The position numbers and the translations under genes were made by a program. The notes beneath the pieces were generated by a model. The model was not told where the DNA came from. It was given only the letters and a program-made list of their open reading frames with translations, and did not search any database. 64,000 nucleotides of DNA from Vitis vinifera (Eukaryota; Streptophyta; Magnoliopsida; Vitales; Vitaceae): positions 28,435,001 to 28,499,000 of the forward strand of contig NC_081818.1 of assembly GCF_030704535.1 (NCBI RefSeq). The letters run 5' to 3'. Positions 25,541-33,780 of the stretch are shown piece by piece (positions within the stretch are counted from its first letter, which is position 1; each line of letters begins with the position of its first letter).

Positions 25541-28500
25541 ATCTCCCACTGGGCCACATGCATATGTAATCAAATAAATGTGCTTAACCTTATGAGCTCA
25601 AAATTTGCTATCATGTCCTTAGGGTATATCCGAACAATCTCGTCCATTAACTATACTGACATAGGATCAAGGTGGCCTTTGTTACATCAATCGTTACTAG
25701 ACCAATCAATGGTCACATATATCTGCACAGCTAAATGACATAGATCAATCATGAGTGCATAGCATGGAAATTACATGCAATGTGATCTATTCATGCCTAT
25801 TTCCAACTGGTCCAACTTAACTTTATTGAGATCAAATCTTTAGCATAATTTAACAGAGTGCAATAAAATGAATACTTTATTTCTGCAGAACACAATCCAA
25901 ATGTATAGATAAAGTCTAAACATAACATAGAGCAATATACAATGAATAATACAAACTCCCACTAAATTTGGATATCCTCAAATGAGACAACACCCATATG
26001 AGCAGTGTGCTCATGAAAGACCTTGGGTGGTAATCCCTTTGTAAGCGGATCCGCTATCATGGAGTTTGTTCCAATATGCTCTATGGATATCTGTCCACTC
26101 TGTACTTTTTCTTTTACAACTAGGAACTTGATATCAATGTATTTTGATTTTGTAGAGCTCCTGTTGTTATTGGAATATAAAACTGCTGATTTATTGTCAC
26201 AAAATATCTTCAGTGGTCTTTCAATACCATCCAGAACACGCAGCCCAGTGACAAAATTTCGTAGCCATATTCCTTGATTGGATGCCTCATAACATGCTAC
26301 AAACTCTGCTTCCATGGTGGATGAAGTTATGAGTGTCTGTTTGGCAGACCTCCATGAAATTGCTCCACCAGCCAACAGATAAATATAGCCTGATGTGGAT
26401 CTTCTGCTGTCTTGGCATCCAGCAAAGTCGGAGTCGGAATACCCAATGAACTCTAACTGATCCAATCTCCTATATGTAAGCATGTACTCTTTTGTTCTCT
26501 GTAAATATCTCATAACCCTCTTGGCTGCTCTCCAATGATCCATTCCAGGGTTACTTAGATATCTGCCTAACATGCCAACAATGTACGCAATATCCGGACG
26601 TGTACATACTTGAGCATACATTAGACTCCCCATAGCCGAAGCGTAAGGAATCTTCTGCATTTCTTGACTTTCTAAACTATTTTTAGAGCATTGATTAAGA
26701 CTGAATTTGTCTCCTTTAGCGACAGGGGTATCACCTGGTTTGCTATTTTGCATGCCATACCTTTGGAGGACTTTATCAATATAGGTCCTTTGTGACAATC
26801 CTAAAATACCCCTAGAACGATCTCGGTGTATCTGGATTCCTAAGACAAAGGAGGCATCACCAAGATCTTTCATCTCAAAATGTTTTGATAAAAATCTCTT
26901 GGTGTCGTGCAATATGCTAATATCATTTGTGGCTAGCAATATGTCATCGACATATAAAACCAGGAAAATATACTTACTCCCACTGAATTTGTGATACACA
27001 CATTCATCCATAAGATTTGCCTCAAAACCATATGAGACAATAATTTGATGAAACTTGAAGTACCACTGACGAGAAGCTTGCTTGAGCCCATAAATGGATT
27101 TAGTTAATTTACAAACCATATTTTTTGAGTCTTCGGACACAAAATTTTCTGGTTGTACCATATAAATTGTTTCATCAATGTCAACATTGAGAAACGCTGT
27201 TTTAACATCCATTTGATGTAACTCAAGATCATAATGTGCAACTAGTGCCATGATTATCCTGAAAGAGTCCTTCATAGAAACTGGAGAGAAGGTCTCTTTG
27301 AAGTCAATTCCTTCTTTTTGAGTAAAGCCTTTAGCTACAAGACGTGCTTTATATCTTTCTACATTACCATTTGAATCCCGCTTGGTTTTAAATATCCATT
27401 TACAACCAATGGGCTTCGTACCAACTGGTAATGGGACAAGTTCCCAAACTTTATTGTCTTGCATAGATTTGTACTCTTCATTCATGGCTTCAATCCATTT
27501 CTGAGAGTTGGAACTTTTCATGGCTTGCTGGAAGTTGATTGGATCATCTTCCATCATTCCACTTTCTACCTCACGTTCCTGGAGATATACGATATAATCG
27601 TCCGAAATTGCATTTCTCATCTCTCTAGTGGATCTCCTTAATGGCATATTTTCTTGAGGTTGTTGAGTTTGTTCTTCAGGAGCAATGTCCTCATTTGCAA
27701 TTAAGGGTTGAACAATATTGTCTGTTGGTTGAGGATCCAAATTTACTTCTTGATCAATGATAGGTAGTGAAACCTGTACATTATCAAAAGCAATAGTAGA
27801 TCCCTCTTCCTCCTCAAAGACAATATTCCTAGCCTGATTTCTCCCCCCAAACTCAACATCCTCAAAAAATGTTGCAGTTCCCGTCTCAAAAATTGACCTA
27901 ATAGTAGGATCATAAAATTTAAAACCCCTTGATTGCTCTGCATAGCCAATAAAGTAGCTGCTAACTGTTTTAGAGTCCAATTTCTTTTCATGAGGCTTAT
28001 AAGGTCTCGCTTCAGCTGGACATCCCCAAATATGAAAGTGCTTTAAACTGGGCTTTCGACCCGTCCAAAGCTCATAAGGCGTTTTAGCAGCCGCTTTAGT
28101 TGGCACCCGATTTAGGATATAAGTTGCCGTTTTGAGTGCTTCACCCCAGAGTTTTTCGGGTAAAGTAGAATGACTAATCATACTCCTTACCATGTCCTTA
28201 AGAGTTCGGTTTCGTCTTTCTGCTACACCATTCATGCTAGGTGATCCTGGCATGGTGTATTGAGGGACGATCCCACATTCCTCTAGGTATTTAGCAAATG
28301 GTCCTGGACGTTGTTCACCTGATCCGTCATATCTACCATAGTATTCACCACCATGGTCAGATCTGACGTTCTTTATTCTTTTGTTGAGTTGTAACTCAAC
28401 TTCTGCTTTAAATGTTTTGAACACGTCCAACGATTGTGATTTCTCATGTATAAGAAATAGGTAGCCATATCTTGAATAGTCGTCTATGAATGTTATAAAG

Positions 28501-31192
28501 TACTGTTGACCATTCCAAGATGCCGTAAGGTATGATCCACAGATATCTGTATGAATTAATTCTAAGACGTCTATAGCTCTATTGGCACCTAATTTCTTTA
28601 TTTTGGTCTGTTTTCCTTTAATACACTCAACACAAATATCAAAATCTGAAAAGTCAAGTGAATCCAAAATCCCATCGGACGCTCAACTCTAGATTTAGAG
28701 ATATGACCTAGGCGTTTGTGCCACAATGAGGCCGAATTATCTTTATTCAATTTACGTTTAGTACCTCGTGATTCCACATGCAAGGTTTCATTATAGGACG
28801 AAACAGTTTCCAACAAATATAGATTATCATAAACATTAAGTAAACCGGTTCCTACAACATTTGAATTAATAGATAATGTAAATCTATTGTTTCCAAATGA
28901 ACAACAATAACCTGATTTGTCCAAAACAGAAACTGAAATTAAATTCCGTCTGAAAGACGGTACAACAAAAGTATCTATTAAATCCAAAAAATAACCAGAT
29001 TTCAATAATAATCTAAAGTGCCCTATTGCCTCTACTTCTACCGACTGACCGTCTCCGACATAGATGCATCTTTCAGCATCACTTGGTTTTCGGTAACTCA
29101 GGCAACCCTGCATAGAAACACAAATGTGAGTAGTAGCACCAGAATCTAACCACCATGTGTTTCTAGATACTGAAGCTAAATTAACTTCAGAACAGACCAA
29201 AGTAAGAAACATACCTTTCTTAACACGCCAAGCAGCATACTTGGTACATTCCTTCTTAGTATGTCCAGGCTTATTACAGAAGAAACATGTTACCTCAACT
29301 TTCTGTTTCTTTTGTTCTGGACCATTAGAAGCAGCAACCTTATTATCCTTATTCTTTCGTTTGCCCTTATCCTTGGAAGTGCTAGCCAGATGAGCACTTT
29401 CGGTCTTGTCTTGCTTCAATCTCTCTTCCTCTTGCACACAGAATGAAATGAGCTCATTAAGAGTCTATTTATCCTTTTGACAGTTATAACTGACCTTGAA
29501 TTGATTAAATTGTGCAGGAAGAGAGATGAGAACCAAATGCACGAGTAAATCATCAGATAACTCGAGTTTCAAAGCCTTAAGTTTTGAAGCAAGATGAGAC
29601 ATCTCCATGATGTACTCCCGAACATTACCCTTGCCTTTATACTTCATTGAAATCAAGCTTGCTAAAAGCGTGCTCGTTTCAGCCTTATCGTTTTTGGCAA
29701 AACGTTTCTGAATTTCCGCAAGGAAGTCACTAGCATTAGTAACCTCATCGGTTACCGCACCCCTGAAAGCTTCTGGAATGTCGCGCTTCATGATCATAAG
29801 ACTTAGCCTATTTGAATGTTCCCACTTACCCCAATAAACCTCATCCTCTTGTGTACTTTCCTCATTGAGTTCATCAGGTTTGGGCATTCTCAAGGCTAAG
29901 TCTATATCCATGCAGCCTAAGAGAATCATCATATTCTCTTTCCAGTCCTTAAAATTAGTTGTAGACCCCCATTTAGGGGCTCATGTTTTATCACATTTGT
30001 TGTAAGTTTTTCTTTGCAGGTGGAAGGCTCTCAAGGAGCCACGTGTCTCTTCCAGATTGGCTAGTAAAGAATCAAGTTAGTGGTTTTGATGGCCAATGGA
30101 AGCTTGACACGTGGAGATATATTCAGCAGAAAAGCTGAAAACCGTTAAGCTGCATGAGAGGGTAGTGGAGGAGCGTCTCTGGCAGCTGGGGAGGGGGTGC
30201 TTTTTGCGAGGCTGCCAGAAGATATTTTGAGGGGATTTCTAGAGTAGAGGGAGGACCGGAGAGAGAAGGATAGGAAAAGAACAGAGGAGTCTGTTTGAAC
30301 AGAGGAGTCTGCTTGCTCATTTCTGCTGAAAAGGAGCTCTCCCAGGTGCGGGCATGGTCGATTTTTAGTTCATATTTTCCTGTCACATTGTTTTTCAAGG
30401 TTTTTCTGTGTGTTTAACTCTCATTCGCTATTTAGATGTGCTTGCCCTGCTAATATCTGATTCTCTTGGGTTTCATTTGAAGTTATCATGTACATGGATT
30501 GTATGAATTGATTTAATTTTCTCTTTCATTCCACCTGTTTTGAGCCCATAGATTGATCTTGAGATGAGACTACATGAGTTCTCTATCTTTCATGATTATT
30601 ATTTTCTTCTATTTTTCTTTCTTTCTTCTCTTTCACTATTTGTTGTTGCTCAAAGAGATGCTCTGTTTCTTCGTAACTGTTTCATTAATGCCTTGCATGA
30701 GGTGAGATTTATGGAAGGGCAAAGACGAGTAATTTTGTGTTAAAGGCGGCTCACAGAGATGCTAACGAAAGAGCGGGACATGGGATGATGACTGGTTTTG
30801 TTAGGACATTGTTTTTAGAGAGAGAACCAGAATGAAAGCCTAAGGGAAGAGGGGGAGTAACAGAGCATTTTTTCAGAAGAGATAGCTTGAGATAAGGAAA
30901 AGACAGAGGAGGCTTCCTTCAACTAGAGGATGAGAGCCTGAGAGGTTTTGAGGTGAGATTCTGGAGGAGTCGTTGGAGCAGCTCTCGCGATCACTGACCT
31001 CCGTCGCCGGAGGCGGTGATGGTCAGGCCGTCGGAAGCATGTAAGACTAGCTGACGTGGCTGAGCGCTGCGATGACGAACCAGGACGTGTGTACCGAGGG
31101 TTTCGACAACGTGAGTGGATTCTTGAAGGATCAGTCTGACACATGGAAGCTCCGGTAACTATCGGAGCTGGTGAGCAACTGTCTTGTGATAT

Positions 31193-31552
31193 TTGCCGCC
31201 AGCAGCGGCGATAACGATTTCGCGGGAGTGCCGATACAGAATTGGAGGGAGGGGCCTTTCTGGAGAGGTTGTTGGGCACAGAGAGGTAGGACCGAGGACG
31301 AGTTTGCACGCTGAGGCAGTGACCTCACTTATGGATGCAAATCTGAACCATGAAATTCATAAAGAGCCTCAACTGGTACATGTGGGGCCATCAAAAGTTG
31401 AGGAGACTTTTGCTCTAGAAAGTGTTGAAGGCTTAAAAAGGACGGAGAAGGATAATTCCCCTGGGGCAGTGGCTCCCAAAGATCACCGTCGATGCCTGCG
31501 TGGCTCCCAACGTCGTTCTTTCCGACGCAAGTCAAATTGGGCAGCAGCGTGA
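31193..31552 (+). other. coding-like patch in the nested LTR, origin unknown
   Basis: An open stretch of about 119 codons, GC-rich and charged, with segments such as NHEIHKEPQLVHVG and ESVEGLKRTEKDN that look like real protein sequence. It lies just upstream of the Sec61-beta piece and may be a second captured host fragment. I do not recognise it. Confidence 0.35.
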
Positions 31553-31604
31553 GATTCAGCTGCGTTGGAGTTGAGGACGAGATGGCGCTGATTCGGGTCA
31601 CTGG

Positions 31605-31919
31605 ATGTATAGACGACATGTGGAAAGCACCGTGGCGGAAGTAGCTTCAGGACGAAGCTTGTTGGAGGGTTATGTAGACCGGTTGTCTTCGACGGCGTCG
31701 TTGTCAATCTCCTCACACGCACTGTCGTTTCAGAGCTCCAGAGGGTGCGGCAGTGGCAGCAGCGGGAGCAACATGCTCCAGTTCTACACCGATGACGATC
31801 CGGGCTTGAAGATTACTCCAACGGTGGTTCTCGTGATGAATCTTTGCTTTATCGGCTTTGTCACCTTTCTTCATGTCCTCGGAAAGATCTATCGCCATAA
31901 ATCTGGTGAAGTGGCTTGA
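31605..31919 (+). CDS. captured Sec61-beta gene fragment inside the nested LTR
   Basis: An open frame of 104 codons. Its last 56 or so codons (from about residue 46) match the plant Sec61 beta subunit as I know it: a Gly/Ser-rich stretch, then [13 protein letters not shown] (M at 31773), then one membrane helix ([20 protein letters not shown]) and a short basic luminal end (GKIYRHKSG). Sec61 beta is a tail-anchored subunit of the ER protein translocation channel. The normal N-terminal part is replaced by unrelated sequence (residues 1-45), so this is a 5'-truncated, apparently intronless capture. No TATA box was identified. It could be expressed from the LTR or be a passenger; it probably lacks a working N-terminus. 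It was recognised from memory of the family, not by search. Confidence 0.8.
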
Positions 31920-33780
31920 TCAAAGATCTCTCCAACATCTTCTCTAAAACTGGGGCACGTCTTAGTGTTTTGGGCCTATTTCCTACCGTTTTGGGCCTAT
32001 TTCCTACCGAGCACTTGGAGGCATTGACTATGGGCTTGGTGACTATGGTGGGTATAATGGCAGTGGCAGTGAACTTGAGGCCACGTGTCATCGCCCACTT
32101 TTTCTTCCCGTGATTTTCAATATAATCTTCCTTAATATCATTTTTATTAATAATTCCTCCAATTGTTTTTTTTTTAATAATGTCAAATTTCCAAATTCTT
32201 CATCTTTGTTTTGTTTTCTTAATTGATTTCTCACATTCATGGTTCTCAAAATAACTTTTTCTTAAATTCTCATTTTCAAATAGTTTTCCAATTTTTAAAT
32301 TCTTCAAATAATTTTAACTTCTCAAAATTTTCATCCTTAGACATATTTTTTAGATTCTAAATATCTCATTCTTTTAATAAAATTCGCCGCCATTTTCTTC
32401 CCGGCAAGCCTTTTTCATATTTTATGTGATTTTCAAAATGTTTTAAAATAAGCAAGAATTTAAATTCCGTAATTCCGAATAATGGTTTTATTGGAATTAA
32501 TTCATGCAAAATAAAACGGGCTTTGGTGGGGGCCCAACATATGAGATTTTATGATTGATGGATTGATTGGTTGATTCGGTTGCCATACATGATTTATTCT
32601 GCTCTATGATATGCATGTGACTATTCCTCAATTGTTTACTAACTCCACTCTTGATAGCGCATATTGGTTTGCCACCCAGGTACGTATTTTCTCACATCAT
32701 GGACACTCCTTATGCTTGTTTTTAATTCTCATACGTGCATAATCATTCTGGGTATTCTCTGATTTACACATCAATTGCCACGTCAGCTTCATTTTAGTAG
32801 TAGAGACCCGACTTTAGGGACTTAGAGGGGTGCTACGGTCCGTACCGTACCTTCCCGATAAGTAACCTGACCCCCGAACCCGATCCGGTTTTTCACAGAC
32901 CGCCTTTTCCAAAATAAGGAGTCACACTTAGGGTTTTTCTTTCTTATTTTGTTTACCCTTTTAAAAATAAAACAAAAATAAGTGGCGACTCCAAGTCATC
33001 TTCTTAATCAATAAAAATCAATTTTTTCAAATGTAAATTGAGCTCGCCTTCGAGTGGGAAACGCATCGAGCAATCGAAATGCGGGGTCCACATTAGTCCC
33101 ATTTAACATAGGGACATTATTGATGTTGACAGATATAGAAGTAGTTGATATAAAAGCTGAATCGAGAACAAAATAAAATGAATCAAATAAACCATCATGC
33201 TCACATAAAATAAGCAATTAAACACATAATCTTTAAATTTAAAAGCAAATTATGACATTTCAAGATACCTAGCACAACATTAATATCAAGTTTTTGGACA
33301 GTAATATTAACTGTAAGTGGTACTCTTGTTGTAGTGATCAAACATTGATGATAAGTTATGTCAAATAATAAATCTATCTTTGGATTGATTTATTATTCAC
33401 ATTAAGTTACCTTTATAATCATCACATATTTATCACCACAGGTATGTATGCAATTTGACCAAATATTAACTTTCCTTTGGGCCAGTCAATACCCGCATGA
33501 ATCACATACACACAAATATCTAACACCCCGAACAGACTAATCTACACGAAAGATGTCACTTTGGTGATTTTCCGCTTTAATTAGCCTATTTAAAATGCTA
33601 GATCAATAACTTAAATATTAATATCATAAAATGCTATTAAATAATAATAATAATAATAATAATAATAGTAATAAAAAAAAATTATCAACTCAATATTTCA
33701 TAAATCTTAATTCATTGACATATATATATATTAAAATAATAACTCAAAGAATTAATCAAGGAGTAGGCTCTGATACCACT

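What the first reader, a model, noticed from the sequence alone, without database searches (positions are those of the whole stretch)
31605..31919. Sec61-beta gene piece captured inside a long LTR
The C-terminal half of a host Sec61 beta subunit ([13 protein letters not shown] plus its membrane helix and basic end) lies in frame inside a 3.1 kb TG...CA insertion that I read as a solo Gypsy LTR. The piece is intronless and 5'-truncated, fused to 45 unrelated codons. Host gene capture by an LTR, rather than by the internal region, is unusual; if the family has many copies, it has spread this piece through the genome.
Basis: partly seen in the sequence, partly recalled or inferred. Interest (0 to 1): 0.72.

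Follow-up and report, generated by a model that had tools for sequence, protein, structure and literature searches.

The report
Retrotransposon LTR built from host mRNAs
A 3.1 kb solo LTR in a plant genome is a string of pieces copied from at least six host genes, one of them Sec61 beta, and sister LTRs of the same large family carry other spliced host messages in the same place, so this retrotransposon family appears to shuffle host exons inside its own terminal repeats.

Summary
The Sec61-beta piece is real (Pfam E=3e-15). It lies in a true solo LTR, window 29960-33092, TG...CA, TSD TTAGT, inserted in a Copia gag. The piece sits in 13 LTRs at 11 insertions; two full-length elements carry it in both LTRs. 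Donor: a complete 108-aa Sec61-beta gene on C13, captured from CDS nt 133 to 70 nt past the stop.

The "45 unrelated codons" are mostly a RING-H2 gene, and the same LTR holds pieces of pectinesterase-inhibitor, M1-peptidase, gamma-carbonic-anhydrase-like and kelch genes, all sense. Sister LTRs carry other host pieces: sense ORFs hit 14 and 8 Pfam families in two LTR sets, antisense ORFs 1 and 0. Five fetched multi-exon donors lack 10 of 10 introns in the LTR copies. Three of five tested junctions show 8-13 nt of donor microhomology. The Sec61 piece drifts neutrally. Best reading: template switching onto packaged host mRNAs during reverse transcription of the LTR; passive cargo. New variant of a known kind.

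The parts
29955..29959 (.). target-site duplication TTAGT, left
29960..33092 (+). solo LTR, 3133 bp, TG...CA
   Evidence: ends as in 14 related LTRs
29960..30234 (+). left LTR block, 97.8% like L032, partly shared by the family
30297..30840 (+). stretch shared (77-97%) with many family LTRs; origin not found
30955..31248 (+). piece of a pectinesterase-inhibitor/pectinesterase gene (donor C16, L026, 89%)
31272..31339 (+). piece of an M1 peptidase gene (donor C13, L040, 90%)
31340..31438 (+). no donor found; shared with the C7 element LTRs
31439..31534 (+). piece of a gamma carbonic anhydrase-like 2 gene (donor C17, L038, 87.5%)
31520..31620 (+). piece of a kelch-repeat gene (C6, L039, 90%; C15 relative L041, 84%)
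31626..31739 (+). piece of a RING-H2 gene (C15, L018, 89.5%)
31735..31989 (+). Sec61-beta piece: donor CDS nt 143-327 plus about 70 nt of 3'UTR (C13, L011, 89.5%)
31605..31919 (+). 104-codon ORF spanning the RING-H2 and Sec61 pieces, both in native frame
32268..33092 (+). right LTR block conserved in the family, strongest from about 32793
33093..33097 (.). target-site duplication TTAGT, right

Best explanation
Window 29960-33092 is a solo LTR of a large LTR-retrotransposon family (Retrotrans_gag ORF, no pol detected) whose LTRs keep conserved ends and carry between them 2-4 kb of cargo stitched largely from spliced host mRNAs. Shown: LTR identity, sense orientation, intron loss, several donors per LTR, microhomology at three of five tested junctions, neutral drift of the Sec61 piece. 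Inferred: host mRNAs are packaged with element RNA; during minus-strand synthesis the reverse transcriptase jumps at short homologies from LTR RNA to a host mRNA, sometimes on to further mRNAs, and back to LTR RNA. As LTR sequence is copied into both repeats, the piece appears in both, and later jumps between sister RNAs reshuffle it. The Sec61 piece entered once and spread. Recombination between two LTRs left this solo copy. The 104-aa ORF most likely has no protein function.
For: TSD and ends; both LTRs of two elements carry the piece, pairs with 8 mismatches in 2945 bp and 0 in 5172 bp; six donors in one LTR, all sense; sense against antisense Pfam hits 14:1 and 8:0; 10 of 10 introns missing over five fetched multi-exon donors; donor-to-donor identity of 8, 13 and 10 nt at three junctions against a null mean of 0.68 nt; neutral counts; 0 of 66 internal ORF pieces hit a host family.
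Against: Two of five junctions show only 3 and 4 nt. The 13-nt case holds for the C15 kelch relative (84%), not for the closer C6 gene. No donor found for 31340-31438, and 30297-30840 is unexplained. In the second LTR set, 2 of 8 (L043, L048) had no family in the ORFs tested singly, and 2 more hits lie just below the curated cut-off. No transcript or packaging data; U3, R and U5 not placed. LTRs were chosen by similarity to the window LTR, not at random.
Confidence: 0.85

Rival explanations
1. A single chance capture of Sec61-beta by one LTR, then copying, with no wider habit (narrow form of the first reader's view).
For: The Sec61 piece has shared breakpoints at donor nt 133 and 397, so it looks like one event.
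Against: Five further donors in the same LTR and other families in other LTRs.
Confidence: 0.04
2. DNA-level capture: genomic fragments joined by a DNA transposon or by end joining inside the LTR.
For: Multi-fragment mosaics resemble Pack-MULEs and Helitrons (recalled; review passages); microhomology also occurs in end joining.
Against: 10 of 10 introns missing in five donors; sense bias. TIR or Helitron ends were not searched for.
Confidence: 0.05
3. Processed pseudogenes made by LINEs inserted one after another into the LTR.
For: Pieces are spliced and sense.
Against: Pieces are short and abut or overlap at shared donor words; the Sec61 piece ends 70 nt into the 3'UTR without poly(A). Target duplications around single pieces were not searched systematically.
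Confidence: 0.04
4. The RING-H2/Sec61 ORF is a new protein-coding gene kept by selection.
For: 104 open codons, both pieces in native frames, membrane helix kept.
Against: LTR-branch changes fit neutrality; window LTR against L009: dN 0.041, dS 0.050; the L010 copy of the young C7 pair keeps only 61 open codons. Against this: deeper LTR pairs have dN/dS of 0.3-0.7, which the spectrum-matched test explains without selection.
Confidence: 0.03

Closest known systems
Bs1 of maize (review passages, PMC13317346)
   Same: LTR element with pieces of three host genes forming a chimeric ORF.
   Different: One element and one gene set; the pieces are described as transduced into the element, and I saw nothing placing them in its LTRs. 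Here the pieces are in the LTRs and differ from copy to copy.
LTR-captured genes of maize, rice and sorghum (passages of PMC2774510, and PMC3726574)
   Same: Host gene fragments carried by LTR retrotransposons; 425 maize elements with at least 189 captures.
   Different: The maize survey found no element with fragments of more than one nuclear gene under its conditions; the rice/sorghum figure legend shows captured genes and LTRs as separate boxes. Here one LTR holds at least six donors.
BARE-2 of barley (review passages)
   Same: Foreign sequence brought into an LTR by abnormal template switching.
   Different: The source was another retrotransposon (Wis-2), not host mRNAs.
TART-A with nxf2 in Drosophila (passages of PMC7785250)
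   Same: A host gene piece in a region that the element copies to both of its ends.
   Different: Non-LTR telomeric element and one gene; mechanism left open by its authors; piRNA effect on the donor gene proposed. No small-RNA data here.
Pack-MULEs and Helitrons (recalled; named)
   Same: Mosaics of several gene fragments spread in many copies.
   Different: DNA transposons that take genomic sequence (recalled); here the pieces are spliced and sense.

Membership tests
Solo LTR of an LTR retrotransposon | TG...CA ends and flanking 5-bp duplication | tested here: met
   TTAGT on both sides; same 5 bp on both sides of nine of 14 related LTRs, the rest being LTRs of full-length elements or partly fetched
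Solo LTR of an LTR retrotransposon | Same sequence type found as paired LTRs with PBS and PPT | tested here: met
   C7 and C18 elements
Ty3/Gypsy | gag of the Retrotrans_gag type | tested here: met
   E=1.2e-12 and 6.3e-12 in two elements
Ty3/Gypsy | pol domains in the order RT, RNase H, integrase | tested here: inconclusive
   No pol hit in 66 short ORFs of two elements; they may be non-autonomous
Host gene capture by reverse transcription | Donor introns absent | tested here: met
   10 of 10 introns in five fetched multi-exon donors, none of them in the window LTR; not testable for Sec61
Host gene capture by reverse transcription | Sense orientation of pieces | tested here: met
   six of six donors in the window LTR
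Host gene capture by template switching | Donor microhomology at junctions | tested here: met
   8, 13 and 10 nt at three junctions; 3 and 4 nt at two
Pack-MULE or Helitron | Element-specific ends around the mosaic | not tested
   TIRs and Helitron ends were not searched for
New protein-coding gene | Purifying selection on the ORF | tested here: not met
   Sec61 part only: 13 S, 29 N, 1 nonsense observed against 13.5, 29.1, 0.4 expected

The most novel reading that the evidence does not exclude
This family has a capture slot inside its LTR: more than a thousand LTR copies would each carry a reshuffled mosaic of spliced host mRNAs, a Pack-type LTR retrotransposon and a record of which host mRNAs its particles packaged. 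Carried in sense in both repeats, the pieces could also yield small RNAs against many donor genes.
Probability: 0.55. Interest if true: 0.88.

Novelty: new variant of a known kind. Interest (0 to 1): 0.77.

Why it matters
Capture of host genes by LTR retrotransposons is described mostly as single-gene events; the maize survey found no element with more than one nuclear gene (PMC2774510, passage). Here one LTR holds at least six donors, and sister LTRs hold others, spliced and sense, with template-switch marks at some junctions. If family-wide, it is a route for exon shuffling, a source of false gene annotations, a fossil record of mRNA packaging by plant retroelements, and a natural test of whether host pieces in an element change its silencing or that of the donor genes.

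Tried and rejected
Functional chimeric protein: rejected on the neutral test. Deeper LTR pairs with dN/dS of 0.3-0.7 looked like constraint, but counts matched to the mutation spectrum show none; the one nonsense change counted there (L014, nt 172) shares its codon with a change at nt 174 found in all LTRs compared, so it is not a stop in the copy. C6 Sec61-beta as donor: rejected, 77% against 89% for C13 with the window LTR. Single capture only: rejected. Promoter placing: TATAWA and AATAAA scans did not fix U3, R and U5. No donor was found for 31340-31438, nor an origin for 30297-30840; one search scored only 40 of 255 candidates, all 11. Names I guessed by eye in the ORF listing are not used unless a call bore them out. 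Weak and not relied on: L033 SETD6-like (E=0.00085), L025 calreticulin (below cut-off), L045 cellulose synthase and L050 Abhydrolase_3 (just below cut-off). The Helicase_C hit of the second LTR set was not traced to its LTR. Literature: in the listings of ten searches I saw no paper on host-mRNA mosaics inside LTRs; only open-licence papers are held, so this does not prove absence.

Full report
WHAT WAS CHECKED. The ORF at 31605-31919 reads as stated. Pfam gives only Sec61_beta, residues 53-93, whole model, E=3e-15, and solved Sec61-beta chains match. The window lies in a 495.6 Mb genome of 21 contigs; that this is a grapevine-like plant is my guess from size and contig number, no call names it.

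THE UNIT IS A SOLO LTR. 29960-33092 begins TGTAGACCCCC, ends GGGGTCCACA and has TTAGT on both sides; 40 bp of each flank joined give one open frame that continues the neighbouring Copia gag ORF. Of 14 related LTRs traced, nine (L012, L013, L014, L020, L023, L024, L025, L030, L031) have the same 5 bp on both sides and are solo LTRs; L010 and L009 are the 5' and 3' LTRs of one C7 element (ACATG); L015 is the 3' LTR of a C18 element (GATTG); L032 is followed by the PBS and L033 preceded by the PPT. In some searches I cut the window LTR one base short (29961); one search mended that.

COPIES WITH THE SEC61 PIECE. The ORF DNA gave 16 places, 16 of 16 candidates scored: 13 are LTRs of this family at 11 insertions, one is the C13 host gene and two are RING-H2 loci matched only by the upstream part. 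The C7 and C18 elements carry the piece in both LTRs, with 8 mismatches in 2945 bp and none in 5172 bp (the 4 gap bases reported are flanking bases that my cut included; one search shows them). So the piece is part of the LTR and has moved recently.

DONOR AND BREAKPOINTS. The best host match is a complete 108-aa Sec61-beta gene on C13 (L011 4646-4972). The captured stretch runs from CDS nt 133/134 (L012, L013, L015) to nt 397, 70 nt past the CDS end (L009, L010, L013, L015; 398 in the window LTR). The same sequence follows in both lineages, so I infer one capture. Other copies keep less: L012 133-333, L014 152-380 or 388, L020 and L023 211-333, L024 157-224 or 227, L025 159-224.

MORE HOST PIECES IN THE WINDOW LTR. 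In order: pectinesterase inhibitor 30955-31248, M1 peptidase 31272-31339, no donor 31340-31438, gamma carbonic anhydrase-like 2 31439-31534, kelch 31520-31620, RING-H2 31626-31739, Sec61-beta 31735-31989. Donor identities were checked on the donor genes. Six of six run in the sense of their genes. 30297-31339 resembles L030 (96.6%) and 31331-32202 resembles L009 and L010 (92%), so this LTR is itself a recombinant.

OTHER LTRS CARRY OTHER GENES. Set 1: 13 LTRs (9 with Sec61, 4 without; the near-duplicates L010 and L023 left out, last 800 bp of each LTR excluded). The 150 longest of 216 sense ORFs hit 14 Pfam families at E<=0.001 (8 ORFs hit Sec61; two of the families come from one SUMO ORF); the 150 longest of 208 antisense ORFs hit 1. 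Set 2: eight LTRs from the 40 right-block matches, not chosen for Sec61; 114 sense ORFs hit 8 families (two in one ORF of L046), 115 antisense ORFs 0. Singly, 6 of these 8 LTRs have a traced hit (L044, L045, L046, L047, L049, L050), those of L045 and L050 just below the curated cut-off; L043 (2 ORFs tested singly) and L048 (1) had none. PDB matches name IPP isomerase in L014, VPS29 in L044 and TIR1 in L031. By contrast 0 of 66 ORF pieces from the internal regions of two elements, their gag ORFs aside, hit any family at E<=0.001. Across LTRs the shared parts are the left 100-270 bp and roughly the right 800 bp.

SPLICED SOURCE. Host genes that match LTR cargo exon by exon are contiguous there: SUMO (1 intron, L030), COX15 (3, L030), an SNF2-type helicase (3, L032), IPP isomerase (2, L014), an alpha/beta hydrolase (1, L012 and L020): 10 of 10 introns missing in the five multi-exon donors fetched. 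These five were fetched because they matched as separate exons; the donors of the window LTR match within single ORFs and do not test this.

JUNCTIONS. In-register identity between two donors around the break: RING-H2/Sec61 8 nt, kelch (C15)/RING-H2 13 nt, Sec61/hydrolase 10 nt (L012), SUMO/COX15 3 nt (L030), carbonic anhydrase/kelch 4 nt. For random positions in eight donor sequences the mean is 0.68, and 8, 10 or 13 or more nt occur with frequency 0.0002, 0.00004, 0.000015; 3 or more with 0.054. The 13-nt case needs the C15 kelch relative rather than the closer C6 gene, and the last junction was compared without the alignment gap present there.

SELECTION. Over codons 53-102 in 8 LTRs, LTR-branch changes are 13 synonymous, 29 non-synonymous, 1 nonsense in host context; the same base changes drawn at random give 13.5, 29.1, 0.4, and P(13 or more synonymous)=0.63. 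Two changes shared by all LTRs were set aside there. Host-to-LTR dN/dS is 0.26-0.59 and includes the host's own constraint.

MECHANISM. Sense pieces, intron loss, chains of donors and donor-to-donor homology at breaks point to reverse transcription with strand transfer between packaged RNAs. Why the LTR and not the internal region takes the cargo is inference: the forced template change at the repeat, and the dispensable middle of the LTR. Family size: 1,014 matches (482+532) of a 45-base right-block pattern with up to 3 mismatches, 0 for the reversed control; the gag ORF matched in 40 of 40 scored places among 604 candidates. How many of these LTRs carry host pieces is extrapolation.

KNOWN WORK. 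I saw passages of a 2026 review (PMC13317346), of the maize survey (PMC2774510), of the rice and sorghum survey (PMC3726574) and of the TART-A paper (PMC7785250). Capture by LTR elements, chimeric LTRs by template switching (BARE-2) and the multi-gene Bs1 are known; in the listings of my ten searches I saw no LTR family with host-mRNA mosaics in its LTRs.

Noticed in passing
window 25962-29953, and from 33098 on: The LTR sits in a Copia element on the minus strand; joined flanks read ISVNINNVPMLNGTNFKDWKENMMIL, in frame with its gag ORF.
   Followed up: partly
window 32983-32992: TGGCGACTCC, the first ten bases of the element's PBS, recurs inside the LTR about 100 bp before its right end, in a row of 0.98 mean identity among 13 LTRs.
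   Followed up: no
L010 7503-8946 against L009 691-1001: The C7 element is flanked by repeated units of roughly 280-310 bp that match at 88-94%.
   Followed up: no
G000 C16:3940759, 3954600 and 3968441: Three right-block matches with equal scores spaced exactly 13,841 bp apart on one strand, as if the element and its LTRs were tandemly repeated.
   Followed up: no
L020 and L021/L022 (C7 near 25.64 and 25.65 Mb): A solo LTR and a PPT-preceded LTR 16.9 kb apart are over 99.8% identical across 5.2 kb, which suggests very recent movement.
   Followed up: partly
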